The notes below the pieces were generated by a model. The model was not told where the DNA came from. It saw only the letters and a program-made list of their open reading frames with translations, and ran no database searches. The position numbers were made by a program, and so were the translations under genes. This document shows positions 26,061-40,260 of a stretch of 64,000 bases of DNA, piece by piece; within the stretch, counting starts at the first letter, position 1; each line of letters starts with the position of its first letter. The DNA is from Bulleidia extructa W1219. GTDB taxonomy: Bacteria; Bacillota_I; Bacilli_A; Erysipelotrichales; Erysipelotrichaceae. The stretch is from positions 186,001 to 250,000 of the forward strand of contig NZ_ADFR01000002.1 in NCBI RefSeq assembly GCF_000177375.1, read 5' to 3'.

Positions 26061-26133
26061 GAGTGATTAGCTCAGCTGGGAGAGCACTTCCTTGACGTGG
26101 AAGGGGTCATGGGTTCGAGTCCCTTATCACTCA
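26061..26133 (+). tRNA. tRNA-Val (GAC anticodon)
   Basis: Acceptor GAGTGAT/ATCACTC, D-arm AGCTCAGCTGGGAGAGC, anticodon loop TTGACGT (GAC), T-arm ATGGG-TTCGAGT-CCCTT. 73 nt, CCA not encoded. Confidence 0.97.
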
Positions 26134-26140
26134 CTATCCC

Positions 26141-26174
26141 ATTAAAGGAAGTTCAATTCAGAACTTCCTTTAAT
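26141..26174. terminator. Bidirectional terminator between tRNA-Val and the AlaX-like gene
   Basis: Perfect 14-bp stem (ATTAAAGGAAGTTC / GAACTTCCTTTAAT) with a 6-base loop. It overlaps the 3' end of the minus-strand AlaX-like gene. Confidence 0.85.
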
Positions 26175-27262
26175 TTGTTTAAAACCTTTTCAATAGATTC
26201 ATCACATTGGAAACTAACCAACTTAGGCGATCCACCACCACGAACATTCAAACTTTCTTGAATCTTTTTCAGATATTCCCTTGCCTGTCCCTCACCGGAT
26301 CCTAAAGCCACATGCACTTCACCATTTACTTTCGAAACAAAAGCTTTTTCAACTCCGTTGTTCAAGAAAGAATTCAGTGAAGAAGCTAATTCTTTACTGG
26401 TAAACCCATCTATCTCTATTACCTTTTCATCAGATGTTCTCACCCTCTCCAATTCAAAAGCCAAAACTTTCTCTTTCCAAACTTGTTCACTCTTATTCTT
26501 TTCTTTTAAATCCGTTTGAAGCTTTTCGATACGTTCTTTCAATTCAGATCCTTTGACACCTGCTTGCCTACTGGCTTCTAGTAAGTATTGATGTTCTGCT
26601 TGGAAACGTTTCTTCGTAGCTGGCCCAACGGTACACAAAACTCTTGTTCCACGTGAAGTTTTTTCGACCCCCAAAACAACAGCCGACCCAATTTCACTGG
26701 TGTGATTCACGTGAAGAGTTCCACATGGCTGTTTATCATATTCTCCAACCTTAACCATTCGAACAAAATCATGTCCTTGGTAGCGTAGATCTGGATAATC
26801 CTTTCCTTTGATATAAGAAAATTCCACAGGTACATCATCCCAAATCACCTTATCCATATACGCTTGGATATTTTTTAATTCTTCTTCATCCACCGTTTCA
26901 TTAACTTCATACCATTGATTCATCGCTTGAACACCAATCGCAATAATATATTTATCTTTTTTACGACGATAATACCCATCCATGGCATGAAATAAAGTTT
27001 GGACACTTGTGTTAAGATAACGAGTTTCTCGATCTACTTTCATTTCAATTGGATCGGTTAATATTCCATCTACTTTGTGCCAAAGAACTTCATTTTCATC
27101 ATATTTTAAATCTGTCACTTTCATTCCATTAATGGTACCAACATCTGCTAACATTCCACCCTTATCGCCATAAAAGATTGTTTCTTCAAATTGATAGTAT
27201 CCTTCTTTTTCTTCTTTAATCGTTGTTTTTAATTCTAATTGTTCAAAATGATCGTTATTCAT
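26153..27262 (-). CDS. AlaX/DHHA1-type alanyl-tRNA editing protein, zinc motif degenerate
   Basis: 369 residues with the AlaX-L layout: beta-barrel start (FEETIFYGDKGGMLADVGTI, the YPxxGGQ equivalent), an editing core to about residue 235, a coiled coil (about 240-290) and a C-terminal DHHA1 domain (residues 295-369, SKVNGEVHVALGSGEGQAREYL and NVRGGGSPKLVSFQ). Standard proteins carry HxxxH and CxxxH zinc motifs. Here the first reads NTSVQTLFHAM, so both His are replaced (N and Q); the second, CGTLHVNHTSEIG, keeps Cys and His. It may be inactive or specialised. A ribosome-binding site AAGGA precedes the ATG. Confidence 0.85.
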   Translation of the reverse strand: MNNDHFEQLELKTTIKEEKEGYYQFEETIFYGDKGGMLADVGTINGMKVTDLKYDENEVLWHKVDGILTDPIEMKVDRETRYLNTSVQTLFHAMDGYYRRKKDKYIIAIGVQAMNQWYEVNETVDEEELKNIQAYMDKVIWDDVPVEFSYIKGKDYPDLRYQGHDFVRMVKVGEYDKQPCGTLHVNHTSEIGSAVVLGVEKTSRGTRVLCTVGPATKKRFQAEHQYLLEASRQAGVKGSELKERIEKLQTDLKEKNKSEQVWKEKVLAFELERVRTSDEKVIEIDGFTSKELASSLNSFLNNGVEKAFVSKVNGEVHVALGSGEGQAREYLKKIQESLNVRGGGSPKLVSFQCDESIEKVLNKLKEVLN

Positions 27263-27469
27263 CCTAAAATTCCTTCCCTGTCAATTCCATGATAACATCA
27301 ATCACTGACTAATTCTTGAGCCACGAATGGAATACTCAACATGCTATTCCAATCTAAAAATCCCATTTTTAGAATAAAGTGCTATTTTCTGATCAATCTC
27401 ATGAAAGTATTTATACATCGCTTTATTAACACGACTATTAGCGTATATAACCCAATATGAAATACTGCT

Positions 27470-28333
27470 CTAACACTTATTTAGAAAGCCATTTCTTGCT
27501 TTTATTTCTGTATCCTCCCTTTCATCAAAACCATCATAAGGAGCTTCAGGATCATGAACTTTTGGTTTTCGCCTTAATGAATTACAAATCTCATCTGTAT
27601 GAGCAAAAGCAAAGTCTATATCATCAGTCCAGCCGGTGTGCCCTGTAATAATTTTTAACTTAAGGTCTCTTTTTCTAAGTATTTCTTCCAATTTTTTCAG
27701 TGATTGAATTTGAAGTCGTCCATTTTCTGCAAGAGTATTTAAAAATGCGTAGCCACCATCCGCTCCAAACCAAATGGTATCTCCTGTAAACAGATAAGCT
27801 TCATCAATCAAATAGACAAGATGGCCCCAAGTATGTCCCGGCACCAGAAAAGCTTCTATCTTAATGTCTCCAATATAAAATACTTGACTATCATTAATTA
27901 AAACTTTTTTATTATCAATATGTACCTGAGGTAATTTGCATAATCCCCAAAAGATTTTACGCCGTTTGCGACCTTCTAAATACTCATTTTCAGTCTTTCC
28001 AATATATATGGTTGATTCACTAAATAATCCAACACTATCTTTTTCAATAGCTCCAACATGATCTGTATCTTGATGAGTAATTAAAATCTCTTTTATATTT
28101 TTTGGATGAATATTAATCCAACGCATTTTTTCCGCAAGCCTGTCATAGTTATATCCTGCATCAATCATAATGGTATGACCATCTTTTGTATAAAAATAAA
28201 TATTAGCTACATACTCTCTGATACAGCTAACTCTTTTATCAATAAAACCTGTATTTAAAGGTTTAAATATTTCTTTTCCTCGAAATGCAAGGGACATAAA
28301 TCTTACTTGAAAATTTGAATCCTTTTTCGCCAT
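27470..28333 (-). CDS. Metallo-beta-lactamase-fold hydrolase
   Basis: 287 residues. Metal motif THQDTDHVGA (HxDxDH form) near residue 86, then VPGHTWGHLVYLID with the third His, FTGDTIWFG with the bridging Asp, and IITGHTGWTDD with the last His. This is the glyoxalase II/hydrolase type of MBL fold; the substrate is unknown. The ATG at 28333 (MAKKDSNF) is placed better from AGAGGTGA than the ATG at 28339. It is monocistronic. Confidence 0.88.
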   Translation of the reverse strand: MAKKDSNFQVRFMSLAFRGKEIFKPLNTGFIDKRVSCIREYVANIYFYTKDGHTIMIDAGYNYDRLAEKMRWINIHPKNIKEILITHQDTDHVGAIEKDSVGLFSESTIYIGKTENEYLEGRKRRKIFWGLCKLPQVHIDNKKVLINDSQVFYIGDIKIEAFLVPGHTWGHLVYLIDEAYLFTGDTIWFGADGGYAFLNTLAENGRLQIQSLKKLEEILRKRDLKLKIITGHTGWTDDIDFAFAHTDEICNSLRRKPKVHDPEAPYDGFDEREDTEIKARNGFLNKC

Positions 28334-28574
28334 GATCATTCACCTCTTTTTCAACATCATTTTACTATATAGGCAGGAAATAAGATGAAAAAAGCCAACC
28401 TTTTTGAGTATATTTCAGCCATGTTGTTGTCCAAATCTTAAGATTCTCTACAAATGCCACACTGAAGTTCTGATTAAACCATCTTTATTTATGATATATA
28501 ATAAAATTGGTAAATTTACAGATAAACCTATTGAAATAACAAGTTATATTAAGAACAGTTGAGGTAAAAAAGAT

Positions 28575-29675
28575 ATGAAATTGCCAAAATTTATTTTGAT
28601 TTCCGCAATGATGTGTACTGTATTTTTGTTAAATGGATGTCGTCATTCTTCTAAAGGGTATGAACAACGCATCATTCAATGGCTTGATAATACCTATGGG
28701 AAAAATTCCTATACTATGAAAAAAGATGTGAATAGGAAACGTTATTTTATGGTCACATTAAATAAATATCCACAACTCAATTTTCGTGTAACCATCGCTC
28801 GTGATGTCAAAACGGGATCGTCATATTTGTGGACAAATTTTGATGAGATTTTTTGCAAACATGCCATAAAAGATTTCAAAAAAACTTATGATATCGGTTC
28901 AGATCAACTTCAATATATGGAGTCTCTACATTTCATATATACCACTAATGCACATTCTCTTGAAAAATTGAAAGTTTCTTATGACAAAATGATGAATTTT
29001 ATTACGTTTGTTTCTAAACAATATCCAATTCTTATTGATATGGGTATTTTGGATATGAGAATGGATGTTAATGGTATCCGACTAAAGGGAAGAGACGATA
29101 GCGATAAATGGATTTATTTGAATATTGCCAAAGTGAAACAAAAAACACTTAAAACAAAGTCATATAAGGAAATTTACGATGAGTTGAAACCCATGTTGAT
29201 CACTCACTCCGAAAATCCAAAGGGGCTTACTTTTCATGCAGATGAGGGGCGTTCATTTATTTTAGGTAGTGATACTCTTGATGATTGCTTATATAAAAAT
29301 CTTGTATTAACAAATACGACACGAAAACAATTAAAAAATACTATTTTACAACCGGGAGAAATAAGTCAACCATATACTCTAAAAAGCGAAAATAACTATC
29401 AATTGATAACCATCACTTTACAAGCCAAAAATTTATCAAATTCTCCAGTTTCATTGCTTAATGCGACAATTGTCAAGGCAACTATAAAAGGGGGAAAAAC
29501 GATATACATCGACCCTGCTTGGATTGAACTGGAAGACAATAAAATAAGAAAGTGGATAGATCCTTACAAAGCTCTGGGGATTTCACCTCCAAAAACAGAA
29601 CAAGAAAAAAAGAGGGCGTTCTTTACAAACATACAAAAGTGCTTTTTGAAATGTCTGAGTATTATCCTAGTGTGA
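28575..29675 (+). CDS. Putative lipoprotein of unknown function
   Basis: 366 residues. Signal peptide with lipobox FLLNG-C near residue 22. The mature part begins HSSKGYEQRIIQWLDNTYGKNSY and is mixed alpha/beta with an apparent C-terminal beta domain (about 265-320). No recognised domain. GAGG precedes the ATG. It stands alone, upstream of tRNA-Lys, with codon use more A-rich than neighbours. Confidence 0.75.
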   Translation: MKLPKFILISAMMCTVFLLNGCRHSSKGYEQRIIQWLDNTYGKNSYTMKKDVNRKRYFMVTLNKYPQLNFRVTIARDVKTGSSYLWTNFDEIFCKHAIKDFKKTYDIGSDQLQYMESLHFIYTTNAHSLEKLKVSYDKMMNFITFVSKQYPILIDMGILDMRMDVNGIRLKGRDDSDKWIYLNIAKVKQKTLKTKSYKEIYDELKPMLITHSENPKGLTFHADEGRSFILGSDTLDDCLYKNLVLTNTTRKQLKNTILQPGEISQPYTLKSENNYQLITITLQAKNLSNSPVSLLNATIVKATIKGGKTIYIDPAWIELEDNKIRKWIDPYKALGISPPKTEQEKKRAFFTNIQKCFLKCLSIILV

Positions 29676-29877
29676 AAAAAGTTATATTGACATTTCAAAA
29701 ATAAAACGAATTTACCAACTGTATAACTATTTAACTTGATGTCTAATCCTTTTCCATTATAAATTAAAGATAGATATCTTCTTTTTCCTCATATGTTTAA
29801 TTTTTTACTGTTCTTTTACATACATAAGTATCGAAAATAAGGTTTCATAATTTATACTTTAAATCATGTTTTTTTAC

Positions 29878-29907
29878 TTGCAAATATACTGTGGGTTGTT
29901 TTATAAT
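29878..29907 (+). promoter_or_regulatory. Promoter of tRNA-Lys
   Basis: -35 TTGCAA at 29878-29883 and -10 TATAAT at 29902-29907, 18-bp spacer, 19 bp before the tRNA. Confidence 0.6.
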
Positions 29908-29926
29908 AATCAGGCAATCCACAAAT

Positions 29927-29999
29927 GGTTCCTTAGCTCAGTTGGCAGAGCAACTGACTCTTAATCAGTGGGTCGTCGGTTCGAGCCCGACAGGAACCA
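29927..29999 (+). tRNA. tRNA-Lys (CTT anticodon)
   Basis: Acceptor GGTTCCT/AGGAACC, D-arm AGCTCAGTTGGCAGAGC, anticodon stem ACTGA/TCAGT with loop CTCTTAA (CTT), T-arm GTCGG-TTCGAGC-CCGAC. CCA not encoded. Confidence 0.97.
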
Positions 30000-30007
30000 C
30001 TTACCGG

Positions 30008-30032
30008 CACAATCATTAGATTGTGTTTTTTA
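30008..30032 (+). terminator. Terminator of tRNA-Lys
   Basis: CACAATC-ATTA-GATTGTG followed by TTTTTT. Confidence 0.88.
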
Positions 30033-30070
30033 TTGTGGCAATTAGAAATGATAGGTATAAAATGAACTGA

Positions 30071-30106
30071 TAATAAAGAAAAGGAACTCGTTTAGTCGAA
30101 TTCCTT
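30071..30106 (-). terminator. Terminator overlapping the pyrR 3' end
   Basis: Minus-strand hairpin AAGGAATTCG/CGAGTTCCTT followed by TTCTTTATT. The upstream arm lies in the last pyrR codons. Confidence 0.75.
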
Positions 30107-30634
30107 TTGAACATACACTTGATTGATGGAATCAATTTCTTCTAATTTCACATGTACAATTTCTTTTTTAGAAGTAGGAATGTTTTTACCAATATAATCC
30201 GGTCGGATAGGCAGTTCCCTATGTCCTCGATCGATTAAAATAGCCAATTGTATCGAAATGGGTCTTCCCATATCAAAAATAGCATCAATTGCAGCACGAA
30301 CAGTTCTGCCAGTATATAAGACATCATCCACCAAAATGAAAGTATAGTCTTTTAAGGAAACGGGAATCTGACAAGCTCCTTTTCTTGGTTCATCCCCAAT
30401 TTCACTTAAATCATCACGGTATAAAGAAATATCAATTTGACCAATCGGAACATCAACATTACCAAATTGTTTAAGCTTTTTGGCTAAACGCTGTGCTAAA
30501 GGGATACCTCTTCTTTTAATTCCCAACAATGCGATCTTTTCTAGACCATTATTTTTTTCAATGATTTCATGTGCTAAGCGACTTAAAGAACGATCGATTT
30601 GATTTTCATCCATGATTTGTACAATTTTGTTCAT
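30092..30634 (-). CDS. pyrR: Bifunctional pyr attenuator-binding protein / uracil phosphoribosyltransferase
   Basis: 180 residues. PyrR binds pyr mRNA with UMP to promote termination and also converts uracil plus PRPP to UMP. The PRPP loop FILVDDVLYTGRTVRAAID lies near residue 97; the N-terminal RLAHEIIEKN and ALLGIKRRGIPLAQRLA are characteristic. GAGAGG ribosome-binding site. No other pyr genes lie nearby, so its RNA targets must be elsewhere. It is divergent from xpt, making a small nucleobase-salvage pair. Confidence 0.95.
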   Translation of the reverse strand: MNKIVQIMDENQIDRSLSRLAHEIIEKNNGLEKIALLGIKRRGIPLAQRLAKKLKQFGNVDVPIGQIDISLYRDDLSEIGDEPRKGACQIPVSLKDYTFILVDDVLYTGRTVRAAIDAIFDMGRPISIQLAILIDRGHRELPIRPDYIGKNIPTSKKEIVHVKLEEIDSINQVYVQKEFD

Positions 30635-30759
30635 AATTACCTCTCTTCCTTATTCTATCTGAAATGACTTGATTTGGGAAAAAGATTTGATGAAAAAGAA
30701 AAGAATCCATAGTAATATGAGGATTATAGATTCGTTTAATTGAAGAAGGAGATTCATAA

Positions 30760-31335
30760 ATGAACTTATTAGAAAATCGCATTTTAGCCGAGGGGAAAAT
30801 ATTCCCAGGAAATATTTTAAAAGTAGACAGTTTTTTAAACCATCAAATCGATCCCATTCTCATAAAACAGATGGGAAAAGAAATTGCCGACCATTTTATG
30901 AATAAAGAAGTTACTAAGATAGTAACAATTGAAACTTCCGGTATTGCAATAGCTTTGACAACAGCTTTTGAATTGGGTGTGCCAATGATTTTCGCCAAAA
31001 AAACAAAAGGGCAAAATATGTCAGATTCCGTTTATGTTTCTCATGTTTTTTCATATACGAAAAAAACAGAATCAACCATTACCATTGACAAACAGTATCT
31101 TAATTCTAAAGATAAAGTTTTAATTGTGGATGATTTTTTAGCAACCGGACAAGCCTTGCTTGGATTGATGGATATTTGTACACAAGCTAAAGCAGAAGTC
31201 TCTGGTTGTGGAATTGGCATTGAAAAAGTCTTCCAAAGTGGCGGAAATAAGATACGTGAAAAAGGATATGATATTTACTCATTAGCAAAAATCAATCACT
31301 TTGAAAAAGATAGAGTAGTTTTTGAAAATGAATAA
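30760..31335 (+). CDS. xpt: Xanthine phosphoribosyltransferase
   Basis: 191 residues. Converts xanthine (and guanine or hypoxanthine weakly) plus PRPP to nucleotide. PRPP loop VLIVDDFLATGQALLGL near residue 125; N-terminus LLENRILAEGKIFPGNILKVDSFLNHQIDP is typical of Xpt. AGAAGGAG ribosome-binding site. Unlike B. subtilis xpt, no purine riboswitch is visible in its short leader; the riboswitch in this window precedes the permease instead. Confidence 0.94.
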   Translation: MNLLENRILAEGKIFPGNILKVDSFLNHQIDPILIKQMGKEIADHFMNKEVTKIVTIETSGIAIALTTAFELGVPMIFAKKTKGQNMSDSVYVSHVFSYTKKTESTITIDKQYLNSKDKVLIVDDFLATGQALLGLMDICTQAKAEVSGCGIGIEKVFQSGGNKIREKGYDIYSLAKINHFEKDRVVFENE

Positions 31336-31486
31336 AATCCTTTTTAAGAGGATATCATAGGTTTTAAGTTAAAAAGTTTGCACCATATGTTAAAAAGATT
31401 GAATTTAAGTTGGAATTTCACTTATTGAAAATATAAGCTCGTAATGATTGAAATATTCTGATTTTTTCAGTATCATTACTAAGTAC

Positions 31487-31559
31487 GCCGATATAGCTCA
31501 GTCGGTAGAGCAACTCATTCGTAATGAGTAGGTCGTTGGTTCGATTCCGATTATCGGCA
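31487..31559 (+). tRNA. tRNA-Thr (CGT anticodon)
   Basis: Acceptor GCCGATA/TATCGGC, anticodon stem ACTCA/TGAGT with loop TTCGTAA (CGT), T-arm GTTGG-TTCGATT-CCGAT. 73 nt, CCA not encoded. It marks the left boundary of the CRISPR/plasmid region. Confidence 0.96.
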
Positions 31560-31875
31560 TATCTTTATGTTCTGTTGGTGTTTACTGATGAACAAAGAGT
31601 CAGTTAGATACTGACTTTTTTTATTCTTTGATTTTTCTTTATTCTTTTAAAAAATATTGAAAAACCTAGAGAATATTTTCAAAATAAAAAGTTTATCCTA
31701 TTAATGCAGTGAATCTCCTATGTTATAGTTCACTAAAAAATTAAGAATAAACTTAATTTGAAACAATTAAAACAAATAAGGCATATATCGATTCTGTGAA
31801 GATAGTTTAGTTTGTTGCTTAAAGTTGACAGAATTAGATTGTAATAAAAAACATGACTATATGTTGGAGTTGGTT
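31560..31875. other. Gene-free stretch between tRNA-Thr and the CRISPR array
   Basis: AT-rich. Contains a terminator for the tRNA (AGTCAG-TTAGATA-CTGACTTTTTTT, 31598-31625) and otherwise no supported gene, cas fragment or leader. It is the trailer side of the array. Confidence 0.5.
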
Positions 31876-32025
31876 GAATTCCTTCCACTTATGCGGGAAC
31901 TACTATCGAAACGGTTTGGCCAGTATGTTCCGTATTGGATCACCCCCGCTCACGCGGGAACTACGCACTTTCAAGGCGAGATTTTCTATCTGTCCCAGGA
32001 TCACCCCCGCTCACGCGGGAACTAC
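31876..32025 (-). CRISPR. Type I-E-like CRISPR mini-array: three repeats, two spacers
   Basis: Repeats of 28 bp at 31876-31903, 31937-31964 and 31998-32025, separated by two 33-bp spacers (61-bp period). The last two repeats are identical; read on the minus strand they start GTAGTTCCCGCGTGAG and end CGGGGGTGATCC, a class known from type I-E systems. The first repeat keeps about 20 of 28 bases, as expected for the degenerate leader-distal end, so the array is read leftward with its leader to the right. A fourth intact repeat is displaced to 35118-35145. No cas gene is in the window. Confidence 0.88.
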
Positions 32026-32376
32026 GTCATGGTTCCAATGAACCGCATACTCATGATCGTGTCCTTCACCTACGATCTGGCTCACCAGCTCATCACAGAT
32101 TTCTTTAAGTATGATTTTCTGTTCTACAGAAGTCTGATTTTTATTTTTATCTGCCAATTCATTAGGCAAGGCTATTATCATTTCCCTCGCCTCGTTCTGT
32201 CTTTGATTTTCTTGATGTGCATTTTCACGTTCATAAGCAGAATAAAACGACCAGTCATACACCATGTTTTTTTCATGTACGACAACTTCTTCCTGCTTAT
32301 CCGATTCACCAGATATGTAGCGAGAACGACCGACGACATCGGTTATCTTAGTATTTTGACCATATACATTAGGCAT
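32011..32376 (-). pseudogene. Truncated MobA/MobL-family relaxase (N-terminal fragment)
   Basis: The protein starts MPNVYGQNTKITDVVGRSRY and shows the family segments MIIALPNELADKNKNQ and EYAVHWNHD. It stops where the chromosome becomes a CRISPR repeat: the natural reading frame runs to 32026, then VVPA and a stop are read from the repeat. In full-length relatives the VHWN segment leads directly into the HxH metal motif and a long relaxase body, both missing here. It is therefore a plasmid mobilisation gene cut after about 117 residues. A GC-rich region upstream (32377-32470) could contain oriT. Confidence 0.8.
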
Positions 32377-32508
32377 AGCGATAGCAGCAAACCTCGAAGA
32401 GAACTGTTACGGCGTAGCCTTAACGGTGTGTTTGCGCTCTCATACGGCGAGGCCTCTTTCTTGTATGGTAGTGTGATTTCTATTTGTTGTCAATATTTAC
32501 ATTTTCAT
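32377..32508. other. GC-rich region upstream of the relaxase start, candidate oriT
   Basis: Contains two TACGGCG copies (near 32410 and 32444) and imperfect inverted repeats in an otherwise AT-rich segment, directly upstream of the mobilisation gene where oriT usually lies. No nic site is identified with certainty. Confidence 0.35.
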
Positions 32509-32562
32509 TGACTTTCTTATGGATAGATATATTATTATAATATAGGTAGTACATAGTACTAC
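32508..32562 (+). promoter_or_regulatory. Promoter and palindromic operator of the toxin-antitoxin operon
   Basis: -35 TTGACT at 32508-32513, -10 TATTAT at 32530-32535 (16-bp spacer). The perfect inverted repeat GTAGTAC-ATA-GTACTAC at 32546-32562 lies just downstream, before AAAGGAG and the antitoxin ATG. This is a fitting site for autorepression by the antitoxin. Confidence 0.65.
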
Positions 32563-32578
32563 GGAAAGGAGATTTATT

Positions 32579-32800
32579 ATGTCTTTTTCTATCAGATTAA
32601 CTGATGAAGAGAAAGCCTTGGCTGAAAGTTATGCTAAACTTCATTCTGTTTCTTTAGGTGAAGCTTTTAAACGTGCTTTATTTGAGAGAATTGAAGATGA
32701 GTATGATATTGCAGTTGCAAGTGAAGCATATAAGGAATATGTGGATAGTGGTTATCAATCAAGACCGATTGAAGAACTATGGAAAGAATTAGATCTATGA
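32579..32800 (+). CDS. RelB/DUF6290-like antitoxin
   Basis: 73 residues. Starts MSFSIRLTDEEKALAESYAK, a ribbon-helix-helix DNA-binding start, followed by SLGEAFKRALFERIEDEYDI and a charged C-terminal tail (KEYVDSGYQSRPIEELWKEL) that would wrap the toxin. Strong AAAGGAG ribosome-binding site. The stop overlaps the toxin start (ATGA), standard for such pairs. Plasmid-borne stability module in the captured segment. Confidence 0.88.
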   Translation: MSFSIRLTDEEKALAESYAKLHSVSLGEAFKRALFERIEDEYDIAVASEAYKEYVDSGYQSRPIEELWKELDL

Positions 32801-33063
32801 GTTACCGTCTTGAAACATCTGTTCGCTTTGAAAAAGAGTTTAAAAAGCTTGATAGATATACTCAGAGGATGATTCAGTCTTGGATATCAAAAAATATTAT
32901 GAATTGTGATGATCCTCGTATTCATGGAAAAGGTTTAACTGCTAATCGGAGTGGACAATGGAGATATAGGATTGGAGATTATCGGTTGATATGTCTGATT
33001 GATGATAATCAATTTGTAATATTAGCTCTAACAATAGGCCATAGAAGAGAAGTATATAAGTAA
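32797..33063 (+). CDS. RelE/ParE-superfamily toxin
   Basis: 88 residues starting MSYRLETSVRFEKEFKKLDR. Typical RelE features: KEFKKLDRYTQRMI helices, PRIHGKGLTANRSGQWRYRIGDYRLICLI and the C-terminal ILALTIGHRREVYK. RelE toxins cleave mRNA in the ribosomal A site. The start at 32797 gives the 4-bp ATGA overlap with the antitoxin; the ATG at 32779 lies well inside the antitoxin. All catalytic-type Arg/His residues at the C-terminus appear intact. Its stop directly abuts the 59-bp repeat. Confidence 0.9.
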   Translation: MSYRLETSVRFEKEFKKLDRYTQRMIQSWISKNIMNCDDPRIHGKGLTANRSGQWRYRIGDYRLICLIDDNQFVILALTIGHRREVYK

Positions 33064-33122
33064 AAATACTTCTTTTTATTCATCAGTATTCCACCACTTT
33101 AAAACTGTTGGCTTTGATAATC
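33064..33122. repeat. 59-bp direct repeat, copy 1 (tail of the replication gene)
   Basis: Identical over 59 bp to 34131-34189, which is the 3' end of the truncated replication gene. This copy lies immediately after the toxin stop codon, suggesting that toxin and replication gene were once convergent neighbours here. Confidence 0.9.
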
Positions 33123-33141
33123 TAAGCCTCCCTAATGGAGA

Positions 33142-33179
33142 AAAGAGATAGGATTGCCGTCCTATCTCTTTATTTTTTT
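33142..33179 (+). terminator. Terminator downstream of the toxin gene
   Basis: AAAGAGATAGGA-TTGCCG-TCCTATCTCTTT followed by ATTTTTTT. Confidence 0.88.
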
Positions 33180-33340
33180 CTGATTATAATTATTATACTA
33201 AATAGCATAAGCATACCAATTGTTACCTGAATTATTCTATTCGACGGAAATAAAATTATATTAAATATGTAGAGAATAGAAATGATTGTCAAAAAAGCAA
33301 CTGCAATTTTTTTTAAATAGCACTTTCTCATATCGACTAA

Positions 33341-33868
33341 TTAGTGGACGTTATACTCCCAATATCCAGAGTTACATGGTAGCGAATGTCTAGGTTCACA
33401 TCCAGGAATATACCCTGCGTGGTATATTGCATCAACAGAGTATTCTGTTTTTTTAGGATTTGTAATATATCTTAAAACAATCCTACATATGTCGTGTCCT
33501 GTCACATATTGAATTGCTGAACAAGTACTAATAATCCCCCCTACTATTTTCAATACGGCTATCCCAATTGCTATCCAACCACTCCTATATGTTGCATCAA
33601 AACTCTCTGGCTTAGTTCCAAATGGAGAATAAACCGTTATTGTTCCGTCTTCGTGATAAATAACTTGTGTATTATCCTGAAAGTGATTAACCAGCTCGCC
33701 TTTTTCGTTTATGTAATTTTTATCCATTATAGGTTCTTCTGTCATCACACCACATGCACTATTTGAAATTTTTTTATTATTTTCTTCATATGCATAAATA
33801 TTTGTAATATTGCTAAAAGTCGTTATCAATGACATAGTAAGAACTATCGTTATAATCTTTTTTATCAT
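33341..33868 (-). CDS. Small secreted protein of unknown function (plasmid cargo)
   Basis: 175 residues. Signal peptide residues 1-26 (MIKKIITIVLTMSLITTFSN, cleavage near YAYEE). The mature part has a polar stretch (INEKGELVNHFQDNTQVIYH), a hydrophobic helix (GWIAIGIAVLKIVGGIIS) and a C-terminal region with several Cys (DICRIVL, PGCEPRHSLPCNSG). The layout (leader, acidic segment, amphiphilic helix, Cys-rich tail) is compatible with a bacteriocin or surface factor, but I recognise no family. It lies between the 59-bp direct repeats. Confidence 0.65.
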   Translation of the reverse strand: MIKKIITIVLTMSLITTFSNITNIYAYEENNKKISNSACGVMTEEPIMDKNYINEKGELVNHFQDNTQVIYHEDGTITVYSPFGTKPESFDATYRSGWIAIGIAVLKIVGGIISTCSAIQYVTGHDICRIVLRYITNPKKTEYSVDAIYHAGYIPGCEPRHSLPCNSGYWEYNVH

Positions 33869-33910
33869 ATTATTTTATCCTTTCTTTGTAATTTATAAAA
33901 GATTTTGATT

Positions 33911-33939
33911 GATAAAAAACACATATAAAAATATGTGTT
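33911..33939 (-). terminator. Terminator of the 28-residue peptide gene
   Basis: AACACATAT / ATATGTGTT stem followed by TTTTTTATC on the minus strand, overlapping the stop codon. Confidence 0.75.
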
Positions 33940-34025
33940 TAATATATTTCTCCATTCTTGTAACGATAAGGGTTGTAATTTAATTTTGTTCCCCTCTTAG
34001 CGTAAGGGTATTTAATAAATTCCAT
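33939..34025 (-). CDS. 28-residue basic, tyrosine-rich peptide
   Basis: Begins MEFIKYPYAKRGTKLNYNPY and ends RYKNGEIY. A strong AGGAGGG ribosome-binding site and an immediately following terminator argue that this very short gene is real. It has no signal peptide or helix. It stands upstream of the secreted protein in the same orientation but is separated by the terminator. Function unknown. Confidence 0.5.
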   Translation of the reverse strand: MEFIKYPYAKRGTKLNYNPYRYKNGEIY

Positions 34026-34079
34026 AAATTCCCTCCTATACACTTCCATTATATATCAATCAAAATATTGTATTCAATA

Positions 34080-34142
34080 ACGAAAAATTAGGTCGCGCGC
34101 ACGCGTTGTGTATTCCTTAAATACTTCCTTAAATACTTCTTT
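34080..34142. other. GC-rich motif and short tandem repeats, candidate plasmid replication site
   Basis: TCGCGCGCACGCG at about 34093-34105 stands out in very AT-rich DNA and is followed by two tandem TTCCTTAAATAC units. It is adjacent to the replication gene. Iteron or origin function is a guess. Confidence 0.3.
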
Positions 34143-34189
34143 TTATTCATCAGTATTCCACCACTTTAAAACTGTTGGCTTTGATAATC
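34131..34189. repeat. 59-bp direct repeat, copy 2 (end of the replication gene)
   Basis: Identical to 33064-33122. This copy is continuous with the replication gene, encoding its last residues LSKPTVLKWWNTDE. Confidence 0.9.
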
Positions 34190-35117
34190 CTGTTTCTCTA
34201 ACACAATCTATTTTTCTACCATTCGGATTATCTAATTGCCACTGATTTACTACAACTTTTTTTGAATTTCTTCCAGCCCATGAATTATTTGGATAATCAA
34301 TTGCCTGTACTGCGCGAGCTCTCTCTAAATGAATACTCCGCTTTCTATAATTTCTTTTATTTTTTTGAATTGGGATATCCGTTCTTTGAATGATAGTATT
34401 GATCGGATACGTAATATAACTATCGTTATAGGCCTCTAATGCATGTAATACATCATCTTCTGTAAATTTATCACCCTTTGTATTCATAAAAGGTATTAGT
34501 CCATATGCATCTTTTTCTAATTCTTCAAAAGGAATAGCACATTTCTTTGCATATGTTGCCAAGGTCATGATGCACCAATATCTATGACCTTGTTGCACTC
34601 CAGCTTTTAATTTCCTGATCCACCAATAATATAAATCTTTCTTACATACCCATGTACCCTTTGGTTTCTTCTCTACAATTCGCTTTTGATACCATTCTGG
34701 GTACTTTTCTTTTGCATCTTTTAAGAGCAGATTAGATTTATAACTAAATTTGACAGCTCTATACTCTTCTGGAACATATTGATTCAGGTATTCTACCGTG
34801 ACTTTTTCACCTACTTTGAACGCTCTTGTACGCTCTCCATTCTTTGTAATGCTTCCAACCATCCTAAATCCTTGAAAAAGACTCTCATATTGAACATTAT
34901 CATGCAAACTTGAAGCTCCCTGTGTCCATGCTTGCCATGTAATTCTTCTTCTTAAACGCTCTAATTCCTTTACAGTGCTTCTAAAAAGCGGTATTGGTCT
35001 TTCAAATACAAAATATAAATGTAATCCTGTTCCGCTACCAACAATATAGGTAGGTCTAGGAAGTCCCCATACGAAAGATAACATCTCATGCCCTTTATCT
35101 ATCTGTGTCATCAAGAA
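34143..35117 (-). pseudogene. N-terminally truncated plasmid replication protein / primase
   Basis: Open frame of 325 codons that runs without a natural start into the CRISPR repeat at 35118; ATGs at 35111 and 35114 are internal. PTYIVGSGTGLHLYFVFERP near the truncated end matches the sGxGxH motif of archaeo-eukaryotic-type (PrimPol) primases found on plasmids; the preceding catalytic DxD motif would lie in the missing part. A middle helical region (residues 150-230) follows, and a C-terminal helix-turn-helix (VRETGLSKPTVLKWW). The gene was probably a plasmid Rep/primase. It is likely inactive. Confidence 0.75.
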
Positions 35118-35145
35118 GGATCACCCCCGCTCACGCGGGAACTAC
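35118..35145 (-). CRISPR. Displaced fourth CRISPR repeat
   Basis: 28 bp identical to the repeats at 31937 and 31998, same orientation. It lies 3.09 kb away, directly against the truncated primase gene, and no spacer or repeat follows to the right. It is probably the leader-proximal side of the interrupted array. Confidence 0.9.
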
Positions 35146-35154
35146 TTAATCTGT

Positions 35155-35201
35155 ATATAAAAATAACATCCATCGCAATACATAGTATTTCTATGGATGT
35201 T
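35155..35201 (-). terminator. Terminator of the DUF5011-like protein gene
   Basis: AACATCCAT / ATGGATGTT stem (35165-35201) followed by ATTTTTAT on the minus strand. It separates the 35243-36292 gene from the CRISPR repeat. Confidence 0.75.
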
Positions 35202-35242
35202 TTAAAATAAGTTCTCAATTTAAAATTTTAAAGCCTTCAAAA

Positions 35243-36292
35243 CTAGTACCCTGTATATGAATAAGTACCCCATTTTTTCAACAATTGATGAATAGAACCA
35301 CCAAAACGACGATTTACCTGTTGTATCACAAAGGCTTTATGAGAGGCAGGCGTATCCGATCCTGCATAGCCGGCTCCCGTTTGTCCAAAACCAGCCCCTT
35401 CAATCCGATGAATCACATAGACGGCTTCCGGAGTCGATAAACTATCAATTAATTTATCTAAACCGGTGATTTGATGGTAAGTGGAGCCCCTAGAATGTCC
35501 CGGAATTCTCAACAACATATTGATTGCTAATTGTGCATTTGGAGAAGCTCTCTCAACCAATAAACCACGGCTGTCAAATTGAAGACTGCCAATTTCTGCT
35601 TTGCTTAAAGAAGACACATCCACCGTTTGAAAAGGATTTTTCGACTTCTTAGCTTGTTCTTGTTTCGCTTTCACTTCCGCCGGTGTGACAACTTTTACCG
35701 TCATACTGGTATCTGATTGAATTCCGCTGATATCCACCGCTCTATAATTGATCGAATATGTCCCATCCTTCTTCATGTTCACATTACCTTGCGTTGTCAA
35801 TAAAGGCAAAATGTTTGTTTCATCATAAATCGAAGAAACATGTGTGGAAGGATTAAAATCATCTCCATTATTCACAATGACTGTATCACTCTTTAATTTG
35901 ATAACAGGTTTATTTGAATTTTTTACATTGACCAAAATCTTTTTCGTAAAAGAATAACCAATATTCTTATCAGAATCCTTTTCTTCCGTATTAAAAAGAC
36001 GTGCTTTTACTGTCACTTGTTGAAAACCCACTTTACCAGGAATAAAATCCTGTACTTCCAATAAACTCTTTTCAATCGAAATCTTATCCAAACGAATAGA
36101 AGAGTTTGTTTTAGAAACAGCTTGAATCACATCTTTTTTGATTGTCTCAAAAGGCTCTGAATCATTTAAAGAAATCTCAAAAATAGGAGTGTTATCCGAT
36201 TCTATTGCTTTAGTTGGCATAAAAACAGGTGTCAAACAAAGAAGAACCATCCCTATACCCACTAAGATTTTGATAATTTTTTTCTTCAACAT
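35243..36292 (-). CDS. Secreted protein with Ig-like (DUF5011-type) domain
   Basis: 349 residues. Signal peptide 1-29 (ending MPTKAIE). A bacterial Ig-like/DUF5011 domain spans about 115-200 (KPVIKLKSDTVIVNNGDDFN and DGTYSINYRAVDISG). After a KAKQEQAKKSKNPF linker, the C-terminal 120 residues form an unknown alpha domain (NAQLAINMLLRIPGHSRGS, EAVYVIHRIEGAGFGQTGAGYAGSD). There is no LPXTG anchor, so it should be free or wall-associated. First chromosomal gene to the right of the CRISPR/plasmid region. Confidence 0.8.
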   Translation of the reverse strand: MLKKKIIKILVGIGMVLLCLTPVFMPTKAIESDNTPIFEISLNDSEPFETIKKDVIQAVSKTNSSIRLDKISIEKSLLEVQDFIPGKVGFQQVTVKARLFNTEEKDSDKNIGYSFTKKILVNVKNSNKPVIKLKSDTVIVNNGDDFNPSTHVSSIYDETNILPLLTTQGNVNMKKDGTYSINYRAVDISGIQSDTSMTVKVVTPAEVKAKQEQAKKSKNPFQTVDVSSLSKAEIGSLQFDSRGLLVERASPNAQLAINMLLRIPGHSRGSTYHQITGLDKLIDSLSTPEAVYVIHRIEGAGFGQTGAGYAGSDTPASHKAFVIQQVNRRFGGSIHQLLKKWGTYSYTGY

Positions 36293-36530
36293 GTTCTTAT
36301 TATACCGTATAACGATTTAACACTTCAAATAAACGCCATCTCCATTATTTTTGAAAAATAACGAATTTTTTCATTAAAATTCATTTCGCGGGGATGATAG
36401 AATTTGTTATTTAACTCAAATAGGTAATTCTTTCTCTAAACAATTTCTATTGTTCCCTAACCATAGAAAATATTTTAAACAGATAGGATTCACCCATCAT
36501 TTTTCTATCCCGCATTCCTTGGAAATAGGG

Positions 36531-36536
36531 TAGAAT
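36531..36536 (+). promoter_or_regulatory. -10 box six bases before the lipoprotein start codon
   Basis: TAGAAT, then AGACGT, then ATG at 36543. AGGG upstream is too far to serve as a ribosome-binding site and lies before the predicted transcription start. Confidence 0.5.
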
Positions 36537-36542
36537 AGACGT

Positions 36543-37655
36543 ATGAAAAAAATATTAACTTGTCTATTATGCCTAACATTGGTGGCATGCGGATCTAAAA
36601 AAGAGCCGATGAAGATACAATCTTTTCCGGAAGAAAAGAAAACGGATAACTACACCCTAGCTGTTCATTCTCGATACGATTTAAAATTTTCAGATAAAAC
36701 ATTAGACACTTATACACAGGATGCTTTACTTCAAAGAGATGGAAATCAAGCGACCTTTTCACAAAATATCCATGCGAATGGACAAACTTCAAAGCTTAAG
36801 GGAAATTATTATAACGGACGATTACATAATACTTTCAATGGCGTTTCCTATTATGAAGAAATGACAATAAATAAGTTAATTAAAACAATGCTTGTCCCGG
36901 TAGAACCAAGCCGAACAATCAAATCAGAGCAATTGGAACGATATCAAGAAAAAGATGGAGTTCATACTTTTTCCTATAAACCAGATGTAGCGAAAGAAGT
37001 TTTTTTAAAGCATTTTGACAGCTATGGCTTAAATAAAGTGGATGAATTAAAAGTGAAGAAAAATGAAATTGTCGATGTCTTTCAAAAAGATCGTTTTGTC
37101 TCAGAAACGGTGAAATTCACATTGGAAGTTAAAAAAAATCATCAAACAGTTGAAATTGAATACCAATCCAAAGCAGAAAGAAGTCAAGTCGGTCATACAA
37201 AAATAAACATTTCTGAAGAACAAAAGAATCTAGAGAAGAAATACATTCATTTTAAGAAAATTGATACTTCAAAAATCAAAACTGAATCTAAAAATGATGA
37301 TGCCCCAGAAAGCAATGCTATGGCTACATTGAAAAAAAGATTAATCAGCCGCTTAAACTATAAAAAAGTATCCGACGATCATTTCAAATCAACCTTTAAT
37401 ACGAGGGAAGAATATAGTTTTATGTTTGATCAGTATACTTTCCAATATAGAAATTATTCTTTGGTATATGGTTATAACTGGAAGAGCGATGTTGCCAGTA
37501 CGGGAAGTTGTACGTATCATTTCAAAAATGGTTCTAAATCCAGTTCTTGCTCACAAAATCATATAGAAACATTTGAAAAAGTAAAAAATTACTTCAAATT
37601 AGAACTTTATTATTGCGGATTAAGTAGCAGTGATTTCATAGATGAGAAAAAATAG
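36543..37655 (+). CDS. Putative lipoprotein of unknown function
   Basis: 370 residues. Short signal peptide with lipobox TLVA-C at residue 16. The mature part has a beta-rich N-terminal half (YTLAVHSRYDLKFSDKTLD) and a C-terminal domain with three Cys (TGSCTYHFKNGSKSSSCS, YYCGL). No recognised family. It lies 26 bp upstream of the sigma-like/SH3 membrane protein gene and is probably co-transcribed with it, so the two may work together at the membrane. Confidence 0.8.
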   Translation: MKKILTCLLCLTLVACGSKKEPMKIQSFPEEKKTDNYTLAVHSRYDLKFSDKTLDTYTQDALLQRDGNQATFSQNIHANGQTSKLKGNYYNGRLHNTFNGVSYYEEMTINKLIKTMLVPVEPSRTIKSEQLERYQEKDGVHTFSYKPDVAKEVFLKHFDSYGLNKVDELKVKKNEIVDVFQKDRFVSETVKFTLEVKKNHQTVEIEYQSKAERSQVGHTKINISEEQKNLEKKYIHFKKIDTSKIKTESKNDDAPESNAMATLKKRLISRLNYKKVSDDHFKSTFNTREEYSFMFDQYTFQYRNYSLVYGYNWKSDVASTGSCTYHFKNGSKSSSCSQNHIETFEKVKNYFKLELYYCGLSSSDFIDEKK

Positions 37656-37681
37656 ATTATAATGTATGGGTAGAGGTAAGT

Positions 37682-38758
37682 ATGGATAAAAGGATATTAA
37701 ACGTTGTTCTTCAAGAAGCGAAAAATGGAAATGCTGAGAGTTTAAATAAACTGGTGAAAAGCTACCAACAAGAAATTTACCGTAATTCAAAGTTGTATAC
37801 GGGAAATAAAGAATTAGCGAAATCAATCACTAAGAACACGATCACCAAGGTCTTCACACATTTGGATGTGGCACTGGAACATGTGGATCATTTTGATGCT
37901 TGGTTATCAGAAGAAACCATGGATAAAGCACTGGAAAGCTTATTGCCGCTAAATCCATTTGAAGTGGGTGAATTAAGGAACATCGGTCTATTGGATGATG
38001 AAAATGTTTGGGCTAAGGTATTTGCGTATAGTGATGGTTTAAGTGAGGGAGAACGAACGGTTTTAAATCTCTCAGCCTTTAAAAAGATGGATATTGGAAG
38101 CATTGCTTCTAAAATTCGTTTATCTCAAGAAGATGTTCAATCTTTATTGGATCGGGCAAAAGACCATTTATCTAAAGAAGGATATTCCTTTGAAGAATAT
38201 GCTCAGTTATTAGTCTCATTTGAAATGGTGGTGCCTAAGCAAATGGTAGACACTCCGATAATCAAAGAAAAAGTATCTGCTCCATTAGAAGACATGCAAA
38301 AAGAAGCGGTGGAAGAAATTAAGGAGAAACCAAAGAAGAACGGCTTTAAGACAACTATGATTTATATCTTAGTTGGTATCATTATTTTAGCTGCGGAATG
38401 GCTAGCCTTGGATTATTTCCTTGGTAACAAGAATAAAGATCAAAAAGTGACGACTCCAAAAACTCAAGAAACAGCTAAACAACAAGAGTCTTCAAAACAA
38501 TCAGAAAAAAATAATACAGAAACTCCAAGTACCCCTAAAGAAACGGTACTAGGAAAAGTTAGCATCATAAAGAGTGGTCTTCATATTCGGAATCAACCCA
38601 CAACGAAAGGGAAAGATTTAGGAACACTCAATAACGGTGATCGTTTTGATGTCTTGGAAATGAAAGAAGCCGATAATTATACCTGGTATCGTATTGGTGA
38701 AAATAAGTGGATTGCCAATCCTTCCGGTTATGTTCACTTCGACAAAACAAATGAATGA
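37682..38758 (+). CDS. Membrane protein with sigma-factor-like N-terminus and extracellular SH3b domain
   Basis: 358 residues. Residues 1-60 (QEAKNGNAESLNKLVKSYQQ, then EIYRNSKLYTGNKELAKSI) resemble sigma-70 region 2, and 118-168 (LSEGERTVLNLSAFKKMDIG, then SIASKIRLSQEDVQSLLDRA) resemble region 4 of ECF sigma factors. One transmembrane helix follows (residues 225-247), then a Lys/Gln/Thr-rich linker and a C-terminal bacterial SH3 domain (SGLHIRNQPTTKGKDLGTLN). The sigma-like part should be cytosolic and the SH3 outside, giving a possible wall-to-transcription sensor. GAGG ribosome-binding site. Whether the sigma part binds DNA or polymerase is unknown. Confidence 0.78.
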   Translation: MDKRILNVVLQEAKNGNAESLNKLVKSYQQEIYRNSKLYTGNKELAKSITKNTITKVFTHLDVALEHVDHFDAWLSEETMDKALESLLPLNPFEVGELRNIGLLDDENVWAKVFAYSDGLSEGERTVLNLSAFKKMDIGSIASKIRLSQEDVQSLLDRAKDHLSKEGYSFEEYAQLLVSFEMVVPKQMVDTPIIKEKVSAPLEDMQKEAVEEIKEKPKKNGFKTTMIYILVGIIILAAEWLALDYFLGNKNKDQKVTTPKTQETAKQQESSKQSEKNNTETPSTPKETVLGKVSIIKSGLHIRNQPTTKGKDLGTLNNGDRFDVLEMKEADNYTWYRIGENKWIANPSGYVHFDKTNE

Positions 38759-38771
38759 TTCAAATTGAAAA

Positions 38772-38801
38772 ATTCTAGCTAATAATAGCTAGAATTTTTT
38801 G
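38772..38801 (+). terminator. Terminator after the sigma-like/SH3 gene
   Basis: Perfect 10-bp stem ATTCTAGCTA-ATAA-TAGCTAGAAT followed by TTTTT. Confidence 0.92.
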
Positions 38802-38899
38802 TATAGGATTCATATTTTTTAGAACTTGGGTTGTATGGTTTCAGTACAATATCAGTGAATGGTTTTCAATAAATTGAGTTGTATTTTAACATATTTCTA

Positions 38900-38929
38900 T
38901 TGTGAAAATGAAATGTGAAACAGTAAAAT
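38900..38929 (+). promoter_or_regulatory. Promoter abutting the O-methyltransferase start codon
   Basis: -35 TTGTGA at 38900-38905, -10 TAAAAT at 38924-38929 (18-bp spacer), then AAAGAT and ATG at 38936. No Shine-Dalgarno sequence, so probably leaderless. Confidence 0.55.
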
Positions 38930-38935
38930 AAAGAT

Positions 38936-39511
38936 ATGGATTTAAAAGAAAAAGCAAGACAAGATCATATTCCAATCATTCAAGATGATGGGCTTGCGTT
39001 TTTATTGTCTTTTCTAGCAGAACATTTAGAGATTCAATCAATCTTAGAAATAGGAACGGCTATCGGTTATTCAGCCATTCAGATGGCCAATGTTCGTTTT
39101 GACATGTGTGTTGATACCTTAGAAATTGATCCGAAACGATATAAACAGGCTTTAGAAAATATTCAAAATGCCCAATTAGAAGACCGAATTCATGTTTATT
39201 TAGAAGATGCCGCTAATTTTAAAAGTCACCAAGACTACGATTTTATCTTTGTAGATGCAGCGAAAGCTCAATACGCTCGTTATGTGGAACATTTCATAAG
39301 AAATAGCCATATTGGAACGTATTTTATGTTTGATAATTTAGAATTTCATGGTTTGGTGGAAGATGATTCCAAGACGAAAAATCGAGGCACAAAGCAACTG
39401 GTTCATAAGATTCAAAAATTCCAAGAAAGATTAAAAAAAGACAGCCGCTTCCACACTGACTTCTATTTAGAAATCGGAGATGGATTAGCTGTCTCCAAAA
39501 GAATTCGTTAG
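38936..39511 (+). CDS. O-methyltransferase, TrmR-like (tRNA 5-hydroxyuridine methyltransferase candidate)
   Basis: 191 residues. Class I SAM-dependent methyltransferase of the COMT/YrrM group: SAM motif ILEIGTAIGYSAIQMA near residue 40, VDTLEIDPKRYKQA near 60, metal/SAM site FIFVDAAKAQYARYV near 101 and MFDNLEFHG near 129. The B. subtilis homologue of this size is TrmR; orthology here is inferred. The 3' end overlaps the convergent TPM-domain gene by 4 bp. Confidence 0.88.
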   Translation: MDLKEKARQDHIPIIQDDGLAFLLSFLAEHLEIQSILEIGTAIGYSAIQMANVRFDMCVDTLEIDPKRYKQALENIQNAQLEDRIHVYLEDAANFKSHQDYDFIFVDAAKAQYARYVEHFIRNSHIGTYFMFDNLEFHGLVEDDSKTKNRGTKQLVHKIQKFQERLKKDSRFHTDFYLEIGDGLAVSKRIR

Positions 39512-40257
39512 AAATGACCGGATGTATGACCAAAGCTACCACTACTGGAACTATGGAATCCACCTCCGTCATCAGAAGAATCATTTTTTGGTTTATGAAT
39601 CACCGTGGTGGTTGTGTAGAGATAAATATCACTTTGTTTCGATAATTGTAGACCTCTTTGAATATAATCCATTGCTTCCAGTTGAATATCGGCACTATGA
39701 TGGCGTCTTTTTAAAGCAAAAACGTACAAAGCAGCTATCAATAAAGGAACAATGCCGGAAATAGCACAACGGATATAGAAAGGAACCATCACAGTATTGA
39801 CACATTCTTTCATAAAACATCTAAAGCCTTCATAATAGTTGTTTTGACGTAAGTAGTTATTCACTACTTTAGAAGCGATTTTTTCCCGTTTTTTAGCATG
39901 ATAGATGGCTTTCGATTTTTTACCATGAGCTACGATATCAAAACCACGATCTCTCATGGTCAATAACAGCATAATTCCTTCACGCTCCTGACCAGAACCT
40001 AGGTTTTGACTGGTGTATATCTTTTCAGAGAAGGCTTCAATGGTGGAATATCCTTTCATATCTTGATAAACACGAATATAAACACTGATTTTTTGATTCT
40101 TTTCAATTTTTTTGGCGTATTGTTCTAAGTTTTCCTTTTGTTCTTGACTAAGGATCCCATGTTCATCAATCACATGATCACTTGAATCGGCACGAACAGG
40201 AAAGAAACAGAAGGACAATAGTAATGCAAAAAGTAGGAATGTTATTTTTTTACGCAT
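39508..40257 (-). CDS. TPM-domain membrane protein (YgcG/YdjH-like)
   Basis: 249 residues. Signal peptide (1-23), an extracellular TPM domain (about 27-150; HVIDEHGILSQEQKENLEQY and LGSGQEREGIMLLLTMRDRG), one transmembrane helix (about 163-183) and a cytosolic tail ending in a Ser/Gly/His-rich stretch (GGGFHSSSSGSFGHTSGHF). It lies 3 bp after the zinc-ribbon gene. Together with 40261-41358 and 41358-42419 it mirrors the B. subtilis ydjGHI set. Confidence 0.85.
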   Translation of the reverse strand: MRKKITFLLFALLLSFCFFPVRADSSDHVIDEHGILSQEQKENLEQYAKKIEKNQKISVYIRVYQDMKGYSTIEAFSEKIYTSQNLGSGQEREGIMLLLTMRDRGFDIVAHGKKSKAIYHAKKREKIASKVVNNYLRQNNYYEGFRCFMKECVNTVMVPFYIRCAISGIVPLLIAALYVFALKRRHHSADIQLEAMDYIQRGLQLSKQSDIYLYTTTTVIHKPKNDSSDDGGGFHSSSSGSFGHTSGHF

Positions 40258-40260
40258 ACA

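What the first reader, a model, noticed from the sequence alone, without database searches (positions are those of the whole stretch)
32026..35117. Plasmid fragment captured between CRISPR repeats, with spacer-length, in-frame edges
A 3.09-kb plasmid-like segment lies exactly between two intact 28-bp CRISPR repeats. At the left the MobL relaxase frame continues for exactly the 33 bp (11 codons, DHEYAVHWNHD) of a spacer and then hits the repeat. At the right the primase frame occupies exactly the 33 bp (11 codons, FLMTQIDKGHE) before the other repeat. Both edges therefore look like ordinary spacers whose sequence is also plasmid gene sequence. The simplest model is that the array held two spacers against one plasmid, and recombination between each spacer and its protospacer replaced the array interior with the plasmid stretch between the two protospacers. 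The immune memory would have acted as a landing site for its own target. The repeats, spacer lengths and frames are seen; the mechanism is inferred.
Basis: partly seen in the sequence, partly recalled or inferred. Interest (0 to 1): 0.88.

Follow-up and report, generated by a model that had tools for sequence, protein, structure and literature searches.

The report
Plasmid piece trapped inside CRISPR array
A 3.1-kb piece of a small plasmid sits exactly between two intact CRISPR repeats in a bacterium in which no Cas1 or Cse1 gene was found, most likely because the abandoned array's spacers served as short homologies for recombination with the plasmid they came from.

Summary
In detail: 3,092 bp (32026-35117) lie exactly between two identical 28-bp type I-E repeats, and both edges cut open plasmid genes in frame. 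The insert is a contiguous arc of a primase/relBE/MobL-like plasmid: a circular relative (L032) and contig L026 carry these genes in the same order and orientation. The rest of the plasmid was not found in the genome.

The "exactly 33 bp" edges are not a visible boundary; homology runs through them. Whether both edges were once spacers is unproven. The one checkable PAM (left edge, CAC) does not fit the nearest studied I-E system.

New: the array is orphan and probably leaderless. Cas1 and Cse1 were not found and a leader motif shared by two relatives is missing.

Closest precedent: an 899-bp pNOB8-like plasmid fragment between two repeats of leaderless locus F of Sulfolobus solfataricus (PMC4390879).

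Favoured mechanism: recombination of two spacers with their protospacers in an array without working immunity (0.55). Rivals: Cas1-Cas2 capture of long DNA, other rearrangement, misassembly.

The parts
35118..35145 (-). CRISPR repeat R1 (28 bp, exact), right border of the insert
32026..35117 (.). plasmid-derived insert, 3,092 bp, in one spacer slot of the array
34143..35117 (-). primase (AEP type) gene, 5'-truncated at the repeat; 324 codons plus stop, none inside
   Evidence: fold of a full-length relative matches RepB' and PrimPol primases
35085..35117 (-). right edge, candidate former spacer S_a (33 bp); continuous with the primase gene
   Evidence: no exact copy found elsewhere
33341..33868 (-). 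175-aa putative secreted protein (by eye), 61% identical to a protein of the Holdemanella contig L047
33064..33122 (.). 59-bp exact direct repeat of 34131-34189 (3' end of the primase gene)
34131..34189 (.). 59-bp direct repeat at the 3' end of the primase gene
32579..32800 (+). RelB-family antitoxin (DUF6290)
32797..33063 (+). RelE/ParE-family toxin
32026..32376 (-). MobL-like relaxase gene, 3'-truncated at the repeat after 117 codons, just before the NLHVH motif of its relatives
32026..32058 (-). left edge, candidate former spacer S_b (33 bp); upstream trinucleotide CAC
31998..32025 (-). CRISPR repeat R2 (exact), left border of the insert
31965..31997 (-). ordinary spacer, 33 bp
   Evidence: no convincing target
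31937..31964 (-). CRISPR repeat R3 (exact)
31904..31936 (-). ordinary spacer, 33 bp
   Evidence: no match
31876..31903 (-). degenerate terminal repeat R4, trailer end
35146..35242 (-). 97 bp between R1 and the next gene: no leader motif; holds a predicted hairpin followed by a U-rich tract (not listed by the terminator scan)

Best explanation
An old type I-E array held two spacers from one small plasmid: S_a from the primase gene and S_b, further from the leader end, from the relaxase-like gene. After immunity was lost (neither Cas1 nor Cse1 is found now, and the leader seems lost), the plasmid could coexist with its own spacers. A crossover at one spacer and a second at the other replaced the stretch of array between them with the 3.09-kb plasmid arc. 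The two outer repeats stayed intact and the rest of the plasmid was later lost. Shown: exact repeat borders, plasmid origin, gene order as in relatives, rest of the plasmid not in the assembly, Cas1 and Cse1 not found. Inferred: that both edges were spacers, the order of events, and homologous recombination as the mechanism.
For: Both junctions are perfect repeat-spacer junctions; random breakage, or integration at one spacer followed by deletion, would not be expected to give two. The insert is one contiguous arc with the same primase - relBE (opposite strand) - MobL order as in circular L032 (141-bp terminal overlap) and in L026. MobL 3' and primase 5' parts were not found in the genome. Cse1 and Cas1 not found and leader motif absent, so interference would not stop coexistence. 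Spacers predominantly hit plasmid backbone genes (PMC11619364, abstract). Recombination between spacers and phage targets is reported (Watson 2018 and Varble 2019 as cited in PMC8616872, passages; the Watson passages that I saw, speak of generalized transduction of arrays, not of spacer-target recombination). A plasmid fragment between repeats of leaderless Sulfolobus locus F, an array that also has a pNOB8-matching spacer, is a close parallel (PMC4390879 sections 14-15; PMC3025118 passages).
Against: S_b has CAC upstream at 33 nt. S. thermophilus I-E, whose repeat shares the 3' end GCGGGGGTGATCC, shows AA in silico and A or T at -1 in vitro (PMC3890593 passages), so S_b does not look PAM-selected; at a length of 34 nt (3 of 48 spacers in G034) the -1 base would be A. 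Neither edge is known as a spacer or exact protospacer. Each homology would be only about 33 bp. The Cse1 search has limited sensitivity (its control rang in 2 of 14 genomes and not in E. coli). Whether the leader was lost before or after the event is not known.
Confidence: 0.55

Rival explanations
1. Aberrant adaptation: Cas1-Cas2 joined the two ends of a 3.09-kb linear plasmid fragment to the leader-side repeat as if it were one giant spacer, duplicating the repeat in one step.
For: Needs one event only. The insert is in the slot next to the outermost repeat on the leader side (orientation from the degenerate trailer repeat and the G034 and G349 arrays). The internal edge needs no PAM in this model, as seen.
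Against: Spacers of this system are of fixed length: 45 of 48 G034 spacers are 33 bp and 3 are 34. No Cas1 found in the genome (control rang in 9 of 14 genomes). No leader motif at R1. One narrow full-text search brought 1 paper and no report of kilobase spacers (listing only).
Confidence: 0.18
2. Another rearrangement: the plasmid first integrated into the array or its repeats (as prophages are recalled to do), and later deletions trimmed both ends back to repeat borders by repeat-repeat or other recombination.
For: Array deletions keep repeat borders and are ascribed to recombination between repeats (PMC3025118 passages). The locus lies at a synteny break relative to G088.
Against: No integrase or transposase was recognised among the five insert ORFs scanned. 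Both edge genes are cut inside coding sequence, so the insert alone cannot be the integrating unit. Trimming to exact repeat borders at both ends needs repeats inside the plasmid or two lucky events.
Confidence: 0.17
3. Assembly artefact: reads of a co-resident plasmid were joined to the array through 33-bp spacers shared with it.
For: The assembly is a draft of 16 contigs. Reads could not be examined.
Against: The remaining plasmid parts are not in the assembly, the insert is single copy, and the contig is 388 kb. Two independent false joins at 33-bp matches would be needed.
Confidence: 0.1

Closest known systems
899-bp pNOB8-like plasmid fragment between two repeats in leaderless CRISPR locus F of Sulfolobus solfataricus (Lillestol 2009, as described in PMC4390879; sections 14-15 and passages seen)
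   Same: A conjugative-plasmid fragment between two CRISPR repeats, in an array without leader and inactive in acquisition; the same array holds a spacer matching pNOB8 with three mismatches (PMC3025118 passage).
   Different: An archaeon with other CRISPR types, 899 bp against 3,092 bp, only a partial plasmid match. I did not see the original paper; whether its edges are spacers is not stated in what I read.
Recombination between phages and CRISPR loci (Varble 2019; Watson 2018; as cited in PMC8616872)
   Same: Short spacer-target identity links a mobile element to the array.
   Different: Phages; the outcome there is transduction, not a plasmid arc fixed in the array. Varble 2019 was not held; of Watson 2018 I saw passages, which describe generalized transduction of arrays.
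Prophage integration into CRISPR repeats in Streptococcus pyogenes (Varble 2021, recalled; my look-up by a recalled DOI found nothing held)
   Same: Mobile DNA flanked by intact repeats.
   Different: An intact prophage with integrase there (recalled); here a fragment with no recognised integrase and both edge genes cut.
Small primase/RelBE/MobL-like plasmids (L032 Spirochaetia MAG, L026 Clostridium MAG, L047 Holdemanella biformis, p_Mneg1 of Mogibacterium neglectum)
   Same: Gene set; order and orientation of primase, relBE and MobL in L032 and L026 (and in L047 if that contig closes into a circle, which is not shown).
   Different: Only 36-76% protein identity over aligned segments of MobL and primase; p_Mneg1 has primase and relBE but no MobL match; the source plasmid itself was not found.

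Membership tests
Type I-E CRISPR array | 28-29 bp repeat of the TTCCCGCNNNNGCGGGGGTGATCC kind | tested here: met
   3 exact copies; shares its 3' half with the S. thermophilus I-E repeat
Type I-E CRISPR array | spacers of 32-34 bp | tested here: met
   two spacers of 33 bp; relative G034 33-34 bp
Type I-E CRISPR array | leader next to the first repeat | tested here: inconclusive
   motif AAGGGATCTTT next to the first repeat in G034 and G349 is absent at R1, but only two relatives were compared and both belong to other species
Type I-E CRISPR array | cognate cas genes (Cse1, Cas1) in the genome | tested here: not met
   no match in G000; controls rang in 2 of 14 (Cse1) and 9 of 14 (Cas1) genomes; Cas3 and others not searched
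Spacer-protospacer recombinant | insert contiguous in the target plasmid and ending at repeats | tested here: met
   by gene order in relatives; the source plasmid itself is not known
Spacer-protospacer recombinant | both edges known as ordinary spacers | tested here: inconclusive
   not among 48 G034 and 16 G349 spacers, which are of other species; no second genome of this species at hand
Spacer-protospacer recombinant | PAM beside the internal edge S_b | tested here: not met
   CAC against AA or A/T at -1; the PAM of this organism is not measured
Cas1-Cas2 giant spacer | Cas1 present and slot next to a leader | tested here: not met
   either may have been lost later
Integrase- or transposase-borne insertion | integrase or transposase gene in the insert | tested here: not met
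   none recognised among five insert ORFs scanned
MobL relaxase family | match to a relaxase family model | tested here: inconclusive
   fragment: no match; one relative: no Pfam match; two relatives: only sub-cut-off NCBIfam matches to MbeD and TrbJ models; NLHVH motif recalled as relaxase-like
AEP primase | AEP catalytic fold | tested here: met
   model of L026 relative, pLDDT 70, pTM 0.49; S-2L PrimPol Z 11.5 and RepB' Z 9.7; Foldseek RepB' E 1.5e-4

The most novel reading that the evidence does not exclude
Orphan CRISPR arrays act as passive sets of short homologies to the mobile elements a lineage has met: once immunity is lost, pairs of spacers from one plasmid let that plasmid swap a multi-gene arc into the chromosome between two repeats. 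Dead immune memory thus becomes a recurrent capture site, with Sulfolobus locus F and this array as two independent cases.
Probability: 0.35. Interest if true: 0.8.

Novelty: new variant of a known kind. Interest (0 to 1): 0.55.

Why it matters
It would show a way in which CRISPR memory, after loss of immunity, helps its former target into the chromosome, and it gives a simple search rule (kilobase plasmid or phage stretches between intact repeats in orphan arrays) that can be tested over all sequenced arrays. It also gives a natural test of whether Cas1-Cas2 can ever capture kilobase DNA.

Tried and rejected
Single-crossover integration at one spacer: rejected, because both edges would then carry the same 33 bp; they differ, and neither recurs elsewhere in the window even as a 12-mer. 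Plasmid-borne mini-array: not favoured, as both edge genes would be cut by its repeats. Transposon or prophage: no such gene recognised. Finding the source plasmid: plasmids gave 87 records at 60-80% DNA identity, mostly over relBE, none covering 80% of the insert; phages 2 short matches; genome contigs 12 loci encoding relatives; viral contigs none; plasmids by primase 203 records, all under 60%, and by MobL 2. The tools warn that records of this genome or very near ones may be left out. Edges as single queries: S_b matched 29 nt at 89.7% inside the MobL-like gene of S. thermophilus plasmid p.P3A (E 0.07); S_a matched an E. coli plasmid at E 0.3, taken as chance. Repeat core in viral contigs: 0. 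Empty site in G088: the region is rearranged there. PAM of S_a: homologous primases differ at the residue before the cut, so it could not be inferred. Targets of the two ordinary spacers: none convincing; 7 Synechococcus phage records at E 0.3 are taken as chance. PDB sequence profiles for primase and MobL: nothing significant. The MobL model was too poor to use (pLDDT 42.5). G063 and G075 Cse1 loci were fetched and scanned only for the repeat motif. In one search the printed primase alignment came out empty and was reprinted, where that alignment was poor at the window's first residues; the alignment used is. The promoter/terminator scan did not list the hairpin beyond R1.
Full report
What is there. 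On the minus strand the locus reads R1 (35118-35145), 3,092 bp, R2 (31998-32025), spacer, R3 (31937-31964), spacer, degenerate R4 (31876-31903). R1-R3 are identical 28-mers and the only copies in the genome at up to 3 mismatches. The repeat shares its 3' half with the I-E repeat of S. thermophilus. In 315 genomes of the order, 3 have repeats of this kind, this one included. The degenerate repeat at the left, and the orientation of the related arrays in G034 and G349, put the leader side at the right.

The insert. Reading from R1: an AEP-type primase gene without its start, a 175-aa protein with a secretion-signal look (by eye), relB-relE on the opposite strand, and a MobL-like relaxase gene that ends at R2 after 117 codons. 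Neither truncated frame has a stop inside, so the event looks recent on an evolutionary scale (inference). The primase identity rests on the predicted fold of a full-length relative (L026:7593-8924, mean pLDDT 70, pTM 0.49): best rows are S-2L PrimPol (Z 11.5, 171 residues, rmsd 3.8) and RepB' (Z 9.7, 172 residues, rmsd 5.1), with Foldseek RepB' at E 1.5e-4. The relaxase name is not backed by any family model.

Plasmid origin. Full-length relatives lie together on three contigs. In the circular L032 (7,710 bp with 141-bp terminal overlap) and in the linear stretch L026, going with the primase gene one meets relBE on the other strand and then MobL, divergent from relBE, as in the insert. L047 (Holdemanella biformis, 10,335 bp) has the same genes and orientations, but the order primase-relBE-MobL holds only if the contig closes into a circle, and it has no terminal overlap. 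L047 also has the 175-aa protein at 61% identity, but at another place and in the other orientation relative to the primase. Identities are 36-47% for the MobL fragment and 37-76% for primase segments. The source plasmid was not found. Searches of the own genome with full-length relatives found only the two truncated genes, so the rest of the plasmid is gone or was not assembled.

The edges. What is informative is that both junctions are exact repeat borders. That leaves few mechanisms: two former spacers, or an integrase acting at the repeat. For the left edge the would-be PAM is inside the insert and reads CAC at 33 nt; at lengths 30 to 37 nt no AA appears, though the -1 base is A or T at 30, 31, 34 and 36. 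On the minus strand of the insert AA precedes 13% of positions and A or T 66%, so failing the loose rule has a one-in-three chance at random. This counts mildly against S_b as a PAM-selected spacer. The PAM of S_a is lost. Neither edge resembles any of 48 G034 spacers or 16 G349 spacers; these are other species, so this says little.

State of the array. Cas1 was not found in the genome (the control rang in 9 of 14 genomes) and neither was Cse1 (the control rang in only 2 of 14 and not in E. coli, although the search did find Cse1 in 3 of 60 genus genomes, so its sensitivity is limited). Two relatives with this repeat type share AAGGGATCTTT close to the first repeat. Their 150-bp flanks align better than 294 of 300 simple shuffles, while the window flank aligns no better than chance to either (76 of 300 and 249 of 300 shuffles as good), and the motif does not occur there at up to 2 mismatches. 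The 97 bp beyond R1 instead hold a predicted hairpin with a U-rich tail (z -2.0, 8 of 200 shuffles fold as well), which would fit a terminator of the neighbouring gene (inference; the terminator scan did not list it). The locus sits at a synteny break against G088, the closest relative found, which has no such repeat. So the array is orphan and probably leaderless.

Precedent. A review of Sulfolobales (PMC4390879, sections 14 and 15 seen in full) describes an 899-bp fragment partly matching a pNOB8-like plasmid between two repeats of locus F of S. solfataricus, a leaderless array. Locus F also has a spacer matching pNOB8 with three mismatches (PMC3025118, passage). Recombination of spacers with phage targets is reported (PMC8616872, passages). 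One published strain, B. extructa PP_925, has a II-A system (PMC12786226, passages); that the window is from B. extructa is my inference from genome size and relatives, not a tool result. Eight full-text searches aimed at such cases (listings, some capped) showed me no bacterial case; the library is partial.

Judgement. Plasmid origin and exact borders are firm. Recombination at two former spacers in a dead array is the best reading because it needs only known processes, explains both borders, and matches the one precedent, also a leaderless array. The PAM result, the lack of a sister array and the unknown order of events keep it near even odds. Giant-spacer capture by Cas1-Cas2 would be the more surprising mechanism and is not excluded.

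Noticed in passing
window 33064-33122 and 34131-34189: A 59-bp exact direct repeat of the primase 3' end brackets the 175-aa protein gene, like a cassette inserted at the end of the primase gene; fragments of primase 3' ends also lie downstream of the primase in G042:C1.
   Followed up: partly
L026, L032, L047/L029: Nearly the same MobL gene (97% identical proteins) with relBE and primase occurs in contigs binned as Clostridium, Spirochaetia and Holdemanella: broad host range or mis-binning.
   Followed up: no
L025: A Treponema MAG contig of 4,142 bp with 141-bp terminal overlap has the closest primase segments (66-76% identity) and an ORF at 2426-3289 that looks by eye like a tyrosine recombinase.
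   Followed up: no
L046 8029-8517: The G034 I-E array (49 repeats, 48 spacers, 44 distinct) carries a block of four spacers twice in a row.
   Followed up: no
window 24000-43900: Gene order around the array is broken into blocks that lie far apart in the relative G088.
   Followed up: partly
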